Source: Symmetrospora coprosmae
Taxonomy: Eukaryota; Basidiomycota; Cystobasidiomycetes; Symmetrosporaceae
Length of the DNA stretch: 64,000 nt
Assembly: GCA_008802785.1 (NCBI GenBank)
Contig: VUYT01000003.1
Location: 682,001 to 746,000 of the forward strand
Direction of reading: 5' to 3'
The notes below the pieces were generated by a model. It did not search any database, was not told where the DNA came from, and saw nothing but the letters and a program-made list of their open reading frames with translations. Positions 52,370 through 58,529 of the stretch are shown in pieces. Positions within the stretch are counted from its first letter, which is position 1. Each line of letters starts with the position of its first letter. A program made the position numbers and the translations under genes.

Positions 52370-55300
52370 CTACAGGGGCATGGGAAACCAGTTCGTGTCG
52401 TATCGCGTGCAGAGGAGGATCTCGCCGCTCTTGCTGTCTGGGCGGGACCAGGCATTGGTATTGGTGGGGTAGAGGTTTGCGATGATGTATCGCTTCCCCT
52501 CAGCGAGGAAGCCAGGTGCGATCTTCTGCAGGTCGGTGATCTGCAGCTGACAGTCACGGTTGTTGTAATCATGACCTTCGGCGGGTGCAGCACCATGGCT
52601 GTAGTCTTGTAGGCGGACAATGCGGAAGCTCTTTGCGACTCGAGGCGGGCATCGCTCCTGTTCAAGGCCAGACAGCACTTCAGCCCAAAGGTCTCACAGA
52701 CTTCAGTGCTGACTGGGTCGCGCACTTCCACCTCCTTTCGCATCACTTCTGCGCAGTCAAAGGCAAAACTCTCGGCTTTGCGCTGTGCGTGCTGGAGCGT
52801 CTCTTCGAGCAGTTCCTTGTCGAGCGTCTTGAGGACGACGGTGCGCTTCTCCGGCTCGTCCTCGAGCTTCTGATAGACGTCCGAAAAGTCCGACAGACCA
52901 GGCAGTGCTTCGGGCTTTGCCGCTATTGGGCCGCGCTGGGAGACGAGGTACAGCTGCTCGGCGAGTAGCTGCTGGATGACGCGCAGCTCCACCTGCGCTT
53001 TCTGCTGCTCGACCTGAATGTCGTGTACGATTTTGTCGCGCTCTCTCTGCGGGTCCCAGCTACGGGTCAGTCTGCGCATCGAGCCGCTCCTGCGTGCTAG
53101 GAGCAACCCACCTCCCAGGCCCGCTTGCGCTCCGCCTCCTCTGTTTCGCCCCATGTGTCCGTCGTCTGCCCCTCGACGTATGGTCCCTTGTAGCCAATGG
53201 GGTAGAGCTTTGTGAGGATGACGTCGATGAACGGCACAAACCCTCCATCCGGCAATAATGAGCGGAAGGAGCACACGCATGGCCGCTTGCGCTTGGGCTG
53301 GAAGCCGAGCTTCGTGTGCCAGGGCACGCGGGTCGTGGAGTTGCCAGTGATGGTAAGCTTACACGACTCGTACGCTTCGAGTGGCTCGGCGCCGTCTGAC
53401 GAGTCAGAATCGAGCTGAGCGGGTGCGACATCAGCAGGCGGTCCGTCGAGAGCCGGAATTCGGTGCACTCCAGCGCACTCACCTTCGCGCCCTGTACGGC
53501 AATCTTCAAGCCGCTGTAGATGTATCCGTAGAACACGGCGCGGTACAGGCTCTCATCGTTGGCGAGTAGGCTGCTCCGGATGCGGTACCACCCGTCGCTG
53601 AGCTCGATCTGGGAGGGGCAACTCATTGTGCGTGTGATGCCTTGGATCGCGTCATCGCTTCCCGGCTCAGGGGGTACCTCGCGCTGCTCGTAGATGATGC
53701 GCGTAACGACCAGGACCATGGGTGCCTTGGAACCAGAGTCGCGCTCCGTGATGCGCTTGATGCACGAGCGCTGTGAGAGAAGCACCTCGCGCTCGTATCT
53801 GCGAGCGCGGCGCGTCAGCAATTGCCGTTCGCCTGTCTCAGGCATGCGAACTGAGCGACCCACCTGTACTTGAGTTGCTCGCACACCTTCTCGAACGTCC
53901 ACCACTCGCGCCATCCTCCGGAGCGCGCCAGGCCTTTCGCAATGCCCGCGAGCTTCCACACGATGAGCGCATAGTGATTCTTGACCCACGCAAGCGAGAT
54001 GCCCTTGCATGCGCTGTAGTACACGAGCTCCTCGAACGCGTCCTCGTGCCCTAGTGTGTCGCCTTGTCCGATGTCGAATCTGTGCAGCTCGCATTTGTCA
54101 AAGGTGAGGAAGATGAGGGCGGGAGGGCTGCGAACGAACAGCACGTCAACACTGCGCTCACGAGACTGCAAAGTCCTGCAGGCGTGGCAACCCACAGGCT
54201 GGCATCGATGAGGTCGTTCACGCGGTACGACGGGTCGATGCCGTACTCGACCATGTTCTTGCGGGGTTCCGATCCCGTTGCTGCAGAGCCACCACGCTGC
54301 CCTGTCAGCCTGATTCCCACGACCACTTCCACTCAGGGAGATGCTATACCCACAGTAGACATCAAATACCGAGTCCTTGCCAGCTTTGAGCTGCCTTTTC
54401 TCCTTGCCCTTCCCGCTTCCATTCACTGGTGCAGGAGCGACAGCTTCCTTCTCGAGAGCTGCAACGACTGCAGCCGGCGCTGTGCCAACGAGCGTACCGG
54501 GGCGAACACTACCCTCGAGGCTCTTGTGCTTGAGCTCCTGCAGGCGATTCGTCGACGGCCGCACGCCGTCTTTGAAAGGCGTCTTGAACGTGCTCCGCCT
54601 GGGCGCCGTCTGCGGTGTGTTTCGAGGCGACATGAGCAGGTTGAGCTGCGGGTGTGCCGCCTGCGTGGCGCGTAGGGGGCCGAGCTGGGAGGATGCACCG
54701 GGCCCGGGCGTGCGAGTGGGCGTAGCGGGCGCGATGTTTGCTCCAGTTCCAGGCCGCGCTACCGTTCTGGGCGGCTTGAAGGCCTGCCGGAGCTTTGGCG
54801 TCGTCGCAATCGTCTGCGCTCCGCCGGCCCCGGTGAGCAGGCCCCGCTTGCTGGCTGCGTTCTGCTGCGCACTGCGTAGAGGACTGGCGGCTCCCATGGT
54901 CATTGCATTCGAGTTCTTGGCGAGCAGCACAGGTCGAGCTGGCGTGTTTAACGGGCGGGCTGCTGCCGCATGGGACTTGCTCCCATCGAGCAGCGCTTCT
55001 GCCCGTTTGAGAGCCTCCTGGTCTGGCATGGCAACTGCTGCTCCACTGCCGCTCGTGAATCCTCCTGCTCCTTGTCCTCGTCCCAGCTGCGAGGCGCGGA
55101 TAGCCCCGACCTGCTCTTCCGCTGCTGCTGTAGCTGCTAGGAGATCCTCGTCGTCCTCATCATCGCCTAAAACATCGAACTCGTCCACGACTGCGGCTGC
55201 ATCGTCAGGCTCGGGAGCAGGCTGTGTTCCGCTGAGCATGGCCGCAGTGCGCGCTACAGCCTCCTTCGAGGGCGGCTTGAGGGCCTTCCCGGACCCCGTG

Positions 55301-56567
55301 ACGAGGCCGAATGGGATGGGTCCGCTTCCTTCGCCGGCATCGCCGTTCCACTCTGCTGCGGCGTCCGTGTCGCTGCGTCGTATCTTGCTCTGCTCCTTCT
55401 CGAGGCTCGCCTTGGCGGGCATGGTGAACGCGCCTCCTCCGCCGAGAGAAAGGCCCACGTCTTTAGGCGCCGGTCGTGCAGCCTGCGCACCGCTTCTGTC
55501 GCTCTCGAAGCTTCGCATGCGCGCCTCGGCATCCGCCTTGCTCGGCATGCTGACGACCGCGCCGCTGCCGGACGTGAAGCCTCCTGCACCCTGCGCGCCG
55601 GCTGCAGCGGCAGCGGCATTGGCGTTCGCGTTCTGTAGAGCGTATCGAAGCGGGTCGAGGCCAGGTCTTGCGAAGGCGCGGTGTGCTGGTGCAGCAGTGG
55701 GCGTATCGACGAGCTGGTTGTGGTTGTGGTTGTGCTGCTGCTGGGGACGGGCCGATGCAGCGCGCGAGGGCGGCCTGAAAGCCGACATCCCTCGTCCTGC
55801 CATGCCGACTGCAGCAGTGCGCGCAAGGATGGGCGTGTCCGCACCCGCATTGCCGTGCTGCGCGCCCGCTGCCTCAGAGTCCTCAGAGTCGTCGAGCAAG
55901 CCTGCCTCGAACTCGCGCGCCTTGCGCAGGGCCGCCTCGGACAAGGGTGCGAATGCTTTGCCCCGCGCAGAGGTGAATGACACTGTCGCTGGGACGAGGG
56001 GAGGGCGTCGGTGTGCAGCAGCAGCAGGTGTGTCGGGTCCACCGGCCATGATGGCCTCGTCCCCGTCCCCAGCCGCGTGACTAGTTTCGTTGTTTTCGTA
56101 TTGCGCCTGGTCCGGAAAGCGGGCTGCGAAGCCCTGCAGAATGGTGCTGTATTTCGCTGCGACGGCTGCTTCGTGGGCTCTTTGTTGAGCATCAGCGTCT
56201 TCTTCGCCTTCGCCTTCTGCGTCGTCGCCATTGCCGTTCTGATTGATCTGTTCCGAGTCCGCGTCCACGAGCATCGCCATCGCGTCTCGTTCTCGTTCTC
56301 CCGCATCTGCATCCGTCCGCGCCTTCAACGGCGACAGCGATGCTGACTGGCGCTGTGAGGGAGGTCTGTGCTGCTGTGACGGGCTGAATATGGCCTCTGC
56401 AGCTTTGTTGGAGGCCTCCTCGGATGCCAGCACCTCATCCCAGTCCTCGCCCGCGTCGTATGAGTCGTACTCGTCCTCCTCCTCGCTGTCTGGCACCGTC
56501 TCATCCACAGCCACCTTCCTCCTCTTGGCTGCTCTGTCGCTGTCATCCATGTCCATGTCCATGTCCA
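52370..56567 (-). CDS. BRH2: BRCA2 orthologue (Brh2), Rad51 mediator with several BRC-like repeats
   Basis: Brh2/BRCA2 loads Rad51 onto single-stranded DNA for homologous recombination and needs Dss1. The start at 56567 (MDMDMDMDDSDRAAKRRK) gives an early basic cluster. The N-terminal 700 residues contain repeats of BRC type at about residues 194 (VSFTSARGKAFAPLSEAALR), 326 (GGFTSGSGAVVSMPSKADAE), 419 (GLVTGSGKALKPPSKEAVAR) and 501 (GGFTSGSGAAVAMPDQEALK), plus a degenerate one at about 373 (GGGAFTMPAKASLEKEQSK). The helical domain has WVKNHYALIVWKLAGIA and LKYRYEREVLLSQRSCIKRI. OB1 has PMVLVVTRIIYEQREVPPEP, IELSDGWYRIRSSL and KIAVQGAK; later parts have VPWHTKLGFQPKRKRPC, LLPDGGFVPFIDVILTKLYP and a coiled insert. 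The last exon ends RYDTNWFPMPL. The junction after NDLIDASL is best read as a 69-nt intron to PPALIFLTFDKCEL. About seven exons; some boundaries are approximate. Confidence 0.94.
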
Positions 56568-56927
56568 TCTCGTCTATCCTGCCTGGCGGTGAGTGTCCTC
56601 GATGGATGGATGGATGGATGGAGGGGAAGACAGCAACAGTCGCCCGCCCTTCTGAGTACGCGTGCTGCTCACTACTCTCTGTGGCAAAGAGCGCGGACAT
56701 CCAACCCTGGGGGAGCATACGAGTGGCAGGCAGCTCGGGATGTGTAGCAGCAGAATAGCAATTCAGTGTACTGCGCCGCTGTCCCGCGTGCGAGGATGAC
56801 AGTATGCCTTCCTTCGTTCTCCGCCTCCACTGGCAGCTGCAGCAGCCCGTCCTGCCTGCACGGGCACGGGGGCACAGAGGACAGAGGGTCGACTGCAGTC
56901 TCCCATCCACTAACAAGCATCGCCAGC
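56568..56927. promoter_or_regulatory. Shared divergent promoter, BRH2 / IST1
   Basis: These 360 bp lie between head-to-head starts. They contain a GATG-type tetranucleotide repeat close to BRH2 and, immediately before the IST1 ATG, a branch-point and acceptor-like sequence (CACTAAC then CGCCAG), so IST1 may have an intron in its 5' UTR. Confidence 0.5.
56601..56622. repeat. (GATG)5 tetranucleotide repeat
   Basis: Five and a half perfect GATG units sit in the BRH2 leader, about 35 bp upstream of its ATG. This is a simple repeat that could vary in length. Confidence 0.9.
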
Positions 56928-58529
56928 ATGCCCTGGATCGCAGGACAGACAAAGATCAGATGCAAGCTCGGGATACAGCGCATACGCACAGTCATTGGTG
57001 GGTGGGAAAGGGACACGCTCTCAGGCATCCTCCCAGACTGACAGCGTGCGCAACGCCGACGTCCCCGACAGAGAAGAACGAGGCACTGGCGAAGCGGTCC
57101 CGCAGAGAGGTCGCATCCCTGCTCGAGGTCGGCAAGACTGAGACGGCAAGGATACGCACAGAGAGCCTCATCCTCCAGGACACGCACAATGAGCTGTCAG
57201 TGAACGAGTGTGCGCCCGGAGCGGGGCTGGGAGCGGGGCAGGCAAGGGGGAGACTATCGCGGCCGGGACAGACGGCAGCAGCAAAGGCAGGGACGGGCTT
57301 CAAGCGAGGCATAGTACCACTCTGTACGGCTCGGCAGTACCCCTGCAGCCTCCTGGACAAGGCCTGTCTGCATGCCGCAGAGCCCCATCGTCTGGCTGGG
57401 CCTGTCGTCCTGCAACACCCCCGCCCGGCCCCGCCTTGCTGGCATTGATGCACGGTCACCTAGCAGGCAGCTGCTGACTGTGTCCGCGCACCCGTATCGT
57501 GCACTCCCACAGCCTGGAGCTCCTCGAACTCTACCTCGAGCTCATCCTCGCCCGCTTCGGCCTGCTCGAAGCCAACTCGAAAGCCAAAGAGCCCGAAGAA
57601 GGGGTGCGCGAGGCCGTGTCGTCCATCGTGTACGCCGCCCCGCGGTGCGAGGTGCGCGAGCTGCACATTGTCCGAGAGGCCCTCATGTCGAAATTCGGGC
57701 GCGAGTGGGCCGTCTCCGTCATGGAGAACACCCAGGGCCACGTCCCGCCCCGCGTGGTCGACAAGTGCACGTCAGAGACACCGTCCAAGGACTGGGTAGA
57801 CCTGTACCTCTTCGAGATTGCGAAAGCGTACCAGGTCGACTGGCGTCCCGAAGGCTTTATTGATCTCGAGCACCACCCGGGCCCAGCGCCTGCTTTGGAC
57901 GGGGAGGCCGACACGGCGGCGCAGGAGCAGCGCTTGGAGGAGGCGGCGCTGTCGAGTGATCCAGTGCATGGGGAAAGCAAGGGCCGAGGCACGAGTGGGG
58001 AAGCAGGGAGAGGCGAAGACGACGACAGTGATGCCGAAGGAGGTGACCTTGCCGAACCAGCCGCCAGCGGGAGCAAGAGCGGGAGTACCAGCCTCCCCTC
58101 TGCTCCATCGATAGATCCCAAGCTAGGCGACGTGCGCAACTCAACATCGACTATACCTATCGTCCGCTCCCCTCCCACATCTTCCTCGTCGCTCCCGTCA
58201 ACAGCGCCGACAGACGGCACATCCGCTTCTGCACAAGCAGGAGAGGGCGGGATCGTCGACCTACCTGCGCCGCCACCCTTTGACCCGGCGCAGAGTGCTC
58301 GCACAGTCGTCATCAAGAGCAATCTGGGCGCTTCGCCTTCCACTGCCACACAGGCAAAGAAGCCGATATCGGGAGGAAGCGGAGACCCGGCTTACGACGT
58401 GTGTGCATCGAGACGCTGCTCGATGCCGTAAAGCTTGTCGACCAGGCTGACCATCGCCTTTTCATATTCTTTCTGCCGGGCCGCCGACAGGATCTGGCAA
58501 GACGTTTCGAGGCGCTCAAGAGGAAGTAG
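56928..58529 (+). CDS. IST1: Ist1, ESCRT-III-like regulator of Vps4
   Basis: Ist1 binds Did2 and Vps4 and tunes ESCRT-III disassembly on endosomes. Exons are 56928-56997, 57072-57195, 57513-58398 and 58491-58529 (372 aa, phases agree). The splices rebuild the Ist1 domain without gaps: MPWIAGQTKIRCKLGIQRIR, EKNEALAKRSRREVASLLEV, GKTETARIRTESLILQ, LLELLELYLELILARFGLLE, SSIVYAAPRCEVREL, FGREWAVSVMENTQGHVPPR and DLYLFEIAKAYQVDW. A disordered linker follows. The last exon encodes only DLARRFEALKRK, a good MIM1 helix (LxxRLxxLK type) that binds Vps4 MIT domains. Intron 2 (317 nt) is far longer than the others. It is head to head with BRH2. Confidence 0.94.

What the first reader, a model, noticed from the sequence alone, without database searches (positions are those of the whole stretch)
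54980..55990. Brh2 with a tandem series of about four or five BRC-like repeats
At least four segments share the F/V-x-T-x-x-G-x-x...S/P...A core of Rad51-binding BRC repeats (about residues 194, 326, 419 and 501), plus a degenerate fifth. Ustilago maydis Brh2, the model fungal BRCA2, is known for a single BRC element. Repeats at 326 and 501 are nearly identical to each other (GGFTSGSGA), suggesting recent internal duplication, while the one at 419 is closest to the vertebrate consensus. This would give a fungal BRCA2 able to hold several Rad51 molecules.
Basis: partly seen in the sequence, partly recalled or inferred. Interest (0 to 1): 0.75.

Follow-up and report, generated by a model that had tools for sequence, protein, structure and literature searches.

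The report
Fungal BRCA2 with five BRC-like repeats
This is the gene for a fungus's version of the cancer-related DNA-repair protein BRCA2; it carries five short Rad51-binding-type repeats instead of the single one of the best-known fungal model, which is within the range seen in other fungi, and it also keeps a second kind of recombinase-docking motif that seems to be shared with animals.

Summary
The minus-strand gene (7 predicted exons, 56568..52370, 1266 aa) is a BRCA2 orthologue: Pfam helical and OB1 domains pass cut-off. A BRC profile built from other fungi, without this protein, finds exactly five segments (Phe-position residues 198, 331, 373, 422, 504), each above all 5000 shuffles. Several BRC repeats in fungal Brh2 are already published (Naganishia 3, Cryptococcus 2). 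Held-out counts run from 0 to 8 in 82 fungal proteins; six have five or more. None of 31 Pucciniomycotina, the probable subphylum, exceeds four by that count (one reaches five). Repeats 2 and 5 share a 12-residue core, but codons and flanks argue against a recent duplication. Pfam's own BRC model passes none of the five. Rad51 binding is inferred, not shown. Beyond the finding: a conserved block just before the DNA-binding domain (FKTPFK here; F-x-[ST]-P-[FW]-K in 32 of 38 fungal representatives) matches the exon-14 PhePP motif of one lizard BRCA2 by profile (0 of 20000 shuffles), with Thr/Ser in place of the first proline. A second motif, AFKPPR, resembles the exon-27/TR2 motif, with weak support.

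The parts
52370..56568 (-). Brh2 (BRCA2 orthologue) gene, predicted 1266 aa, 7 exons: 56568-54354, 54280-54196, 54127-53864, 53798-53483, 53414-53112, 53046-52698, 52638-52370; six introns of 59-73 nt with GT donors and AG acceptors
   Evidence: Gene model; Pfam OB1 102.8 bits and helical 31.7 bits on the spliced protein; aligned over 98% of residues 725-1266 to P0002 at 36% identity. Start codon and splices are predicted, no transcript seen.
55894..55983 (-). BRC-like repeat 1, aa 196-225, core FTSA (FxxA type), GK present
   Evidence: 32.6 bits in the fungal profile, 0 of 5000 shuffles; Pfam PF00634 16.3 bits, below the cut-off of 20.3
55495..55584 (-). BRC-like repeat 2, aa 329-358, core FTSG, Ala where GK is usual; fits the published strict consensus Fx[ST][AG]xGx12[ASV]
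   Evidence: 31.4 bits, 0 of 5000 shuffles; strict pattern match
55369..55458 (-). BRC-like repeat 3, aa 371-400, degenerate (LSLG, no LFDE-like module)
   Evidence: 23.4 bits, 0 of 5000 shuffles; residues
55222..55311 (-). BRC-like repeat 4, aa 420-449, core LVTG (Leu in the Phe position), GK present
   Evidence: 29.4 bits, 0 of 5000 shuffles
54976..55065 (-). BRC-like repeat 5, aa 502-531, core FTSG, LLD in the distal (LFDE-like) place; best fungal-profile score of the five
   Evidence: 40.8 bits, 0 of 5000 shuffles; residues
54766..54801 (-). FxPP motif, aa 590-601 TPKLRQAFKPPR, resembling the vertebrate exon-27/TR2 motif (Ser/Thr-Pro seven residues before the Phe, Arg four after)
   Evidence: Best local alignment with the P0060 TR2 stretch, 21 of 3000 shuffles as good; two FxPP in the N-terminus, 89 of 20000 shuffles as many. 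Weak.
55768..55779 (-). second FxPP tetrapeptide, aa 264-267 (FRPP), between repeats 1 and 2; no TR2-like flanks
   Evidence: Pattern only; weak
54550..54612 (-). conserved block aa 653-673 around FKTPFK (661-666), proposed counterpart of the vertebrate exon-14 PhePP motif
   Evidence: Pattern F-x-[ST]-P-[FW]-K in the 200 residues before the domain anchor in 32 of 38 fungal representatives, query included; profile from 32 basidiomycete proteins carrying the pattern, query excluded, scores 21.3 bits here and 27.7 bits at the PhePP motif of lizard BRCA2 P0060, each 0 of 20000 shuffles

Best explanation
An ordinary, intact-looking basidiomycete BRCA2 orthologue (Brh2): a Rad51 mediator. Its N-terminal half, presumably disordered, carries five BRC-like segments. 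Three of them keep the Phe (repeats 1, 2 and 5) and repeat 4 has Leu, so four plausible Rad51-monomer docking sites and one degenerate one (inferred). The C-terminal half (helical domain, OB1, and a region aligned to the tower/OB2 end of other fungal Brh2 proteins; no OB3 found) would bind Dss1 and single-stranded DNA. Between them lies at least one PhePP-like motif, possibly two, that would stabilise the finished Rad51 or Dmc1 filament. Most likely sequence: repeats capture Rad51, the DNA-binding domain places it on ssDNA, the PhePP-like motifs hold the filament. Shown by sequence: orthology, five segments, the conserved block, and the presence of Rad51, Dmc1 and Dss1 in the same genome. Inferred: every binding step.
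For: Pfam helical and OB1 over cut-off; 97 homologues at E <= 0.001 with residues 725-1266 as query, among the 7992 candidates scored (a capped list), best 4.4e-75. Five segments above all shuffles in each of 14 hold-out trainings; negative controls clean. In the same genome: Rad51 (C6:81350-82413), Dmc1 (an exon of C33:247503-248442, best PDB match DMC1 at 7.7e-30 against RAD51 at 1.5e-19) and Dss1 (2.0e-9). A 181-residue piece of its Rad51 aligns with RAD51 chains (human, by recall) at 8e-95; by the chain numbering of 5jzc_A it keeps the FTTA self-association motif, E91 and D187, with Glu at D184, residues named as TR2 or BRC contacts in PMC10622577 (passages). FxxG cores are reported in fungal BRCA2 (PMC10684384, section 13).
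Against: No transcript, binding or docking data. Pfam PF00634 passes none of the five. Repeats 2 to 5 have Gly for the Ala of FxxA; F and A are reported critical in a mammalian BRC repeat (PMC12803100, passages). Repeats 3 and 4 lack the Phe. The distal LFDE-like module is fair only in repeat 5 and partial in 1 and 2. No separate Pfam hit for OB2 or tower. The start codon and all splices are predicted.
Confidence: 0.88

Rival explanations
1. Only one to three of the five segments bind Rad51; the others are decayed relics, so the protein works much like the single-BRC Ustilago Brh2.
For: Repeat 3 (LSLG) and repeat 4 (LVTG) lack the Phe; only repeat 1 has the full FxxA (FTSA) and any Pfam score. 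A single repeat, BRC2 or BRC4, is reported sufficient for viability of mouse stem cells (PMC12803100, passage).
Against: All five keep fungal-profile scores of 23-41 bits, above all shuffles; Gly for Ala is common in fungal repeats (PMC10684384 section 13).
Confidence: 0.45
2. The array grew by a recent internal duplication (repeats 2 and 5).
For: Twelve identical residues in a row, QGAGGFTSGSGA. The two Phenoliferia proteins look like cases of real tandem expansion, so the process does occur in this family.
Against: 7 of the 12 codons in that run differ; DNA 53% identical over 34 codons, flanks 33% and 40%; the nine-residue core GGFTSGSGA recurs in Phenoliferia. An old duplication is not excluded.
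Confidence: 0.07
3. The segments are chance matches in a Gly/Ala/Ser-rich region.
For: The core pattern is short; Pfam does not confirm it.
Against: 0 of 5000 shuffles of the same composition reach any of the five; no hit in 77,378 residues of other frames or in the reversed N-terminus.
Confidence: 0.03

Closest known systems
Brh2 of Naganishia liquefaciens (PMC10684384)
   Same: Basidiomycete BRCA2 with several BRC repeats, helical-OB1-OB2 domain without OB3, 1193 aa there, FxxG and FxxA cores in fungi
   Different: Three potential repeats there, five here; the word PhePP does not occur in that paper
Brh2 of Ustilago maydis
   Same: Orthologue, same domain order as described in PMC10684384
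   Different: One established BRC repeat (PMC10684384); seven Ustilaginales-type homologues here give 1-2 by the held-out profile. The U. maydis protein itself was not among the proteins fetched by name
Kwoniella and Mortierellomycota BRCA2 proteins (P0030-P0032, P0062, P0065, P0122)
   Same: Five to eight BRC-like segments each by the held-out profile
   Different: Other lineages (names, placement recalled); several of their repeats keep GK
Vertebrate BRCA2 exon-14 and exon-27 PhePP motifs (PMC11436757, PMC10622577)
   Same: F-x-x-P-F-K block before the DNA-binding domain (exon 14) and AFxPPR with a Ser/Thr-Pro seven before the Phe (exon 27)
   Different: Exon-14 core is FVPPFK; here FKTPFK with Thr for the first Pro. 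Exon 27 lies after the DNA-binding domain; the AFKPPR motif here lies before it

Membership tests
BRCA2/Brh2 | BRCA2 helical domain | tested here: met
   PF09169 31.7 bits, cut-off 25
BRCA2/Brh2 | OB1 domain | tested here: met
   PF09103 102.8 bits, cut-off 25.6
BRCA2/Brh2 | OB2 with tower | tested here: inconclusive
   No separate Pfam hit, but residues 725-1266 align over 98% with P0002 and other Brh2 homologues; no structure was predicted
BRCA2/Brh2 | At least one BRC repeat | tested here: met
   Five segments by the fungal profile; three by the published loose pattern; none by Pfam cut-off
BRCA2/Brh2 | Binds Dss1 and ssDNA, loads Rad51 | not testable with these tools
   Dss1 and Rad51 genes are present in the genome
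BRC repeat (Pfam PF00634) | Score over the curated cut-off of 20.3 bits | tested here: not met
   Repeat 1 16.3 bits, other four none; control segments: P0020 36.9 and P0022 24.3 pass, Phenoliferia P0033 repeat none
BRC repeat, published consensus Fx[ST][AG]xG (PMC10684384) | Core pattern | tested here: met
   Three of the five (198, 331, 504) match; 331 also matches the strict form with x12[ASV]; 373 and 422 do not match
BRC repeat | Binds Rad51 through FxxA and LFDE-like modules | not testable with these tools
   Residues listed
PhePP motif (FxPP) | Phe-x-Pro-Pro | tested here: met
   FRPP at 264 and FKPP at 597
PhePP motif, exon-14 type | F-x-P-P-F-K | tested here: not met
   FKTPFK at 661: Thr in place of the first Pro; profile relation to the motif of one vertebrate protein is strong
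PhePP motif | Binds and stabilises Rad51 or Dmc1 filaments | not testable with these tools
   No binding assay or complex prediction available

The most novel reading that the evidence does not exclude
The recombinase-filament-stabilising PhePP motif of vertebrate exon 14, described so far as a DMC1-binding motif, is an ancient part of BRCA2 that fungi and perhaps plants keep as F-x-[ST]-P-F-K just before the DNA-binding domain. In that form the motif carries a proline-directed phosphorylation site in its core, so that filament stabilisation could be switched by cyclin-dependent kinases, a switch that vertebrates have instead in exon 27. In this fungus five BRC-like repeats (Rad51 capture) and two PhePP-type motifs (filament holding) would sit together upstream of the DNA-binding domain.
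Probability: 0.33. Interest if true: 0.6.

Novelty: new member of a known kind. Interest (0 to 1): 0.33.

Why it matters
For the finding as given: modest. It adds a higher-count member to a known pattern of variable BRC number, useful for asking why some fungi manage with one repeat and others keep eight. The by-product matters more: if the conserved block before the DNA-binding domain is the counterpart of the exon-14 PhePP motif, genetically tractable fungi could be used to test what that motif does, and whether a kinase switches it.

Tried and rejected
Family search for PF00634 in the own genome: no answer either way, since the short model rang in none of the 14 control genomes. Pfam on the unspliced frame and on single segments does not confirm the repeats; judged insensitive for fungi (58 homologues P0002-P0059, one with a listed match; Phenoliferia control negative), with the reservation that one Ustilago segment passes when scanned alone although its protein lists no match. 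Nucleotide search in phage records: no match, as expected.

Recent duplication of repeats 2 and 5: rejected on codons and flanks. Tree of the DNA-binding half: the protein is a long branch of 1.83 with no supported sister; the five nearest rows by path are Pucciniomycotina (placement recalled). A conserved neighbour gene, Ist1, has its closest named relative in Cystobasidiomycetes sp. EMM_F5 at 62% identity and unnamed ones at 94%, so the fungus is probably a Cystobasidiomycete, unproven.

Count comparisons: 121 homologues were held; 85 fungal ones were put in the hold-out test and 82 had the anchor (P0048, P0056 and P0057 dropped). The 36 others are vertebrate, insect, plant, unnamed or odd-length proteins and a few fungal ones that I did not list. 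Thresholds differ: not held out, P0055 reaches five and the two Puccinia proteins four; held out they have four, and two and three.

FxPP motifs as a general fungal feature: enriched only moderately. 34 in 62 N-termini, query included, against a shuffle mean of 18.3 and maximum of 30 (500 shuffles), but relatives are counted many times. With 38 representatives, mostly one a genus, and local shuffles, 8 have one in the linker, mean 3.2, 58 of 5000 as many; without the query 7, 171 of 5000. Control orders of the same letters are not all rarer: PF.P occurs in 8 and P.PF in 7 of 38 linkers, which weakens the FxPP claim. The TR2 spacing (Ser/Thr-Pro at -7) occurs at the query's 597 site and at none of the other FxPP sites listed, so it may be chance; six of 84 other fungal N-termini align better with the same TR2 peptide, some of them away from any FxPP. 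Local alignment with the exon-14 peptide alone was not significant (661 of 3000 shuffles as good), although it landed on FKTPFK; the profile test was.

Limits of the exon-14 profile: only one vertebrate protein was tested. A beetle (P0070) and a Mucoromycota protein (P0074) give nothing above shuffles. Five Mortierellomycota proteins score 4.7 to 12.4, around shuffle level, in a register that puts the profile's PFK, not its F, on their LPFKPP-type stretch. Plant hits are weak singly, 4.5 to 16.2 bits, some under the shuffle 95% line; they are suggestive only for their constant place, 152-157 residues before the anchor in 13 of 19 named plant proteins, seven of these 13 being Brassicaceae; the other six lack it as best hit.

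Full report
What the gene is. The finding lies in a minus-strand gene. Exon 1 is one open stretch of 2215 bases (56568-54354) that holds all repeats; six short introns (59-73 nt, GT donors, AG acceptors) interrupt the rest, and the predicted protein has 1266 residues. The spliced protein passes Pfam's cut-offs for the BRCA2 helical domain (31.7 bits) and OB1 (102.8 bits). Its residues 725-1266 find 97 proteins at E <= 0.001 among the 7992 candidates scored, led by Rhodotorula and other basidiomycete proteins (4.4e-75, 36% identity over 98% of the query), with a vertebrate and plants further down. It is a BRCA2 orthologue. No OB3 was found, as PMC10684384 describes for fungi (section 6 read). 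The start codon and splices are predictions.

The repeats. The published loose consensus Fx[ST][AG]xG matches at residues 198, 331 and 504; the strict form matches at 331. To test all segments I built a 30-column profile from other fungal Brh2 N-termini, never including this protein. Seeded with 82 pattern-matched segments it finds exactly five peaks here: 198 (32.6 bits), 331 (31.4), 373 (23.4), 422 (29.4) and 504 (40.8); none is reached in 5000 shuffles (best 18.1). With each of 14 taxonomic groups left out of training in turn, the same five exceed all 300 shuffles. The DNA-binding half, the reversed N-terminus and 77,378 residues of other window frames give no hit at 14 bits (profile). The cores are FTSA, FTSG, LSLG, LVTG and FTSG; the distal LFDE-like place is fair in repeat 5 (LLD), partial in 1 and 2, poor in 3 and 4. 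Pfam PF00634 gives only repeat 1 a sub-threshold 16.3 bits; of three control segments from homologues two pass and one does not.

Is the number unusual? With held-out profiles 82 fungal proteins (of 85 put in; three lacked the anchor) have 0 to 8 segments. Six of 82 have five or more: three Kwoniella and three Mortierellomycota. Among 31 Pucciniomycotina (placement of the genera recalled) the highest held-out count is four; one of them, P0055, reaches five with the profile, which was not held out. So five is at or near the top for that subphylum, to which this fungus probably belongs: the neighbouring Ist1 gene has its closest named relative in Cystobasidiomycetes sp. EMM_F5 (62% identity; lineage). 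The tree of the DNA-binding half does not place it with support. In print, PMC10684384 reports three potential repeats in Naganishia, two in Cryptococcus and one in Ustilago, and sees the potential for more to be identified (passages and sections 6 and 13). PMC3136434 notes a range of one to fifteen over eukaryotes (passage). The finding is thus a new member of a known kind.

Recent duplication? Repeats 2 and 5 share a run of 12 residues, QGAGGFTSGSGA, in which 7 of 12 codons differ. Over the 34 residues from 327 on, 15 are identical, 9 of them with different codons; DNA identity is 53%, and the flanking 60 bases are 33% and 40% alike. The core GGFTSGSGA occurs three times in P0033 and twice in P0055, both Phenoliferia. 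This is an old or recurring form, not a recent copy.

Partners. The same genome holds Rad51 (C6:81350-82413), Dmc1 (within C33:247503-248442) and Dss1 (C76); the Dmc1 exon tested matches DMC1 structures at 7.7e-30 and RAD51 at 1.5e-19 at best. A Rad51 piece of 181 residues aligns with RAD51 chains at 8e-95. By the numbering of chain 5jzc_A it keeps FTTA (86-89), E91 and D187 and has Glu for D184 (the roles of these residues from passages of PMC10622577).

PhePP-like motifs. PMC11436757 (passages) and PMC10622577 (passages) describe FxPP motifs in exons 14 and 27 of human BRCA2 that bind and stabilise recombinase filaments, against the disrupting BRC repeats. This protein has FxPP at 264 and 597; two or more occur in 89 of 20000 shuffles. 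The 597 site reads TPKLRQAFKPPR and aligns with the lizard (P0060) TR2 site SPFLKRAFQPPR; 21 of 3000 shuffles align as well, and six of 84 other fungal N-termini align better. More striking is a block close before the DNA-binding domain: F-x-[ST]-P-[FW]-K lies in the 200 residues before the domain anchor in 32 of 38 fungal representatives, the query included. A profile from 32 basidiomycete proteins that carry the pattern, query excluded, has its best hit in P0060 exactly at the exon-14 PhePP motif (AFVPPFK, 27.7 bits) and in the query at FKTPFK (21.3 bits), each 0 of 20000 shuffles, and in a chytrid at FTTPFK (24.3 bits, 0 of 5000); the window's other frames reach 13.1 at most. P0060 is the only vertebrate protein tested; the human sequence FVPPFK is quoted in PMC11436757. 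Against a universal motif: a beetle (P0070) and a Mucoromycota protein (P0074) show nothing above shuffles, five Mortierellomycota proteins score only 4.7 to 12.4 and in another register, and plants are weak: in 13 of 19 named plant proteins the best hit is a PFK-[RKM]-PR motif, 12 of these [VI]SPFK, 152-157 residues before the anchor, at 4.5 to 16.2 bits, while the other six have another best hit. So the exon-14 motif seems to have a basidiomycete and chytrid counterpart with Thr or Ser for the first Pro. Dunce and Davies remark that exon 14 lacks the CDK site of exon 27 (PMC11436757, passage); the fungal form has a Ser/Thr-Pro inside the motif. No paper naming such a fungal or plant motif came up in the searches. 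The library is limited, and the papers of Miron et al. 2024 and Sutherland and Holloman 2023 were not read.

How it most likely works. Shown by sequence: orthology, five segments, the conserved block, the partners' genes. Inferred from the families: repeats dock Rad51 monomers, the DNA-binding domain with Dss1 puts them on ssDNA, PhePP-like motifs hold the filament. How many of the five repeats bind Rad51 is open; on the cores I would guess repeats 1, 2 and 5, possibly 4.

Noticed in passing
54550-54612 (aa 653-673) and homologues: Conserved F-x-[ST]-P-[FW]-K block before the BRCA2 DNA-binding domain in 32 of 38 fungal representatives, matching the exon-14 PhePP motif of one vertebrate protein by profile.
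   Followed up: partly
54766-54801 (aa 590-601): AFKPPR with a Thr-Pro seven residues before the Phe, like the vertebrate C-terminal TR2 motif but placed before the DNA-binding domain.
   Followed up: partly
Agaricomycete homologues (P0017 ... P0121): 18 of 24 mushroom-type Brh2 proteins with an anchor show no BRC segment by the held-out profile and the other six show one: either very diverged repeats or BRC-poor BRCA2 proteins. One of them (P0049) had three weak peaks of 8-13 bits with the profile.
   Followed up: no
Phenoliferia homologues P0033 (Phe at 348, 381, 414) and P0055 (341, 372, 400, 433): Closely spaced, very similar BRC repeats, 28-33 residues apart, that look like a real recent tandem expansion.
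   Followed up: no
57499-58431: Neighbouring gene on the plus strand encodes an Ist1 (ESCRT regulator) protein, Pfam PF03398 121 bits; its 94%-identical relatives come from unnamed ENA contigs.
   Followed up: partly
own genome C33:247503-248442 (L011): A Dmc1 gene on the same contig as Brh2; a frame there reads PRDMGGAEGK about where human DMC1 has the PhePP-binding loop GAGGYPG (quoted in PMC11436757), thus looking more like the Rad51 loop.
   Followed up: no
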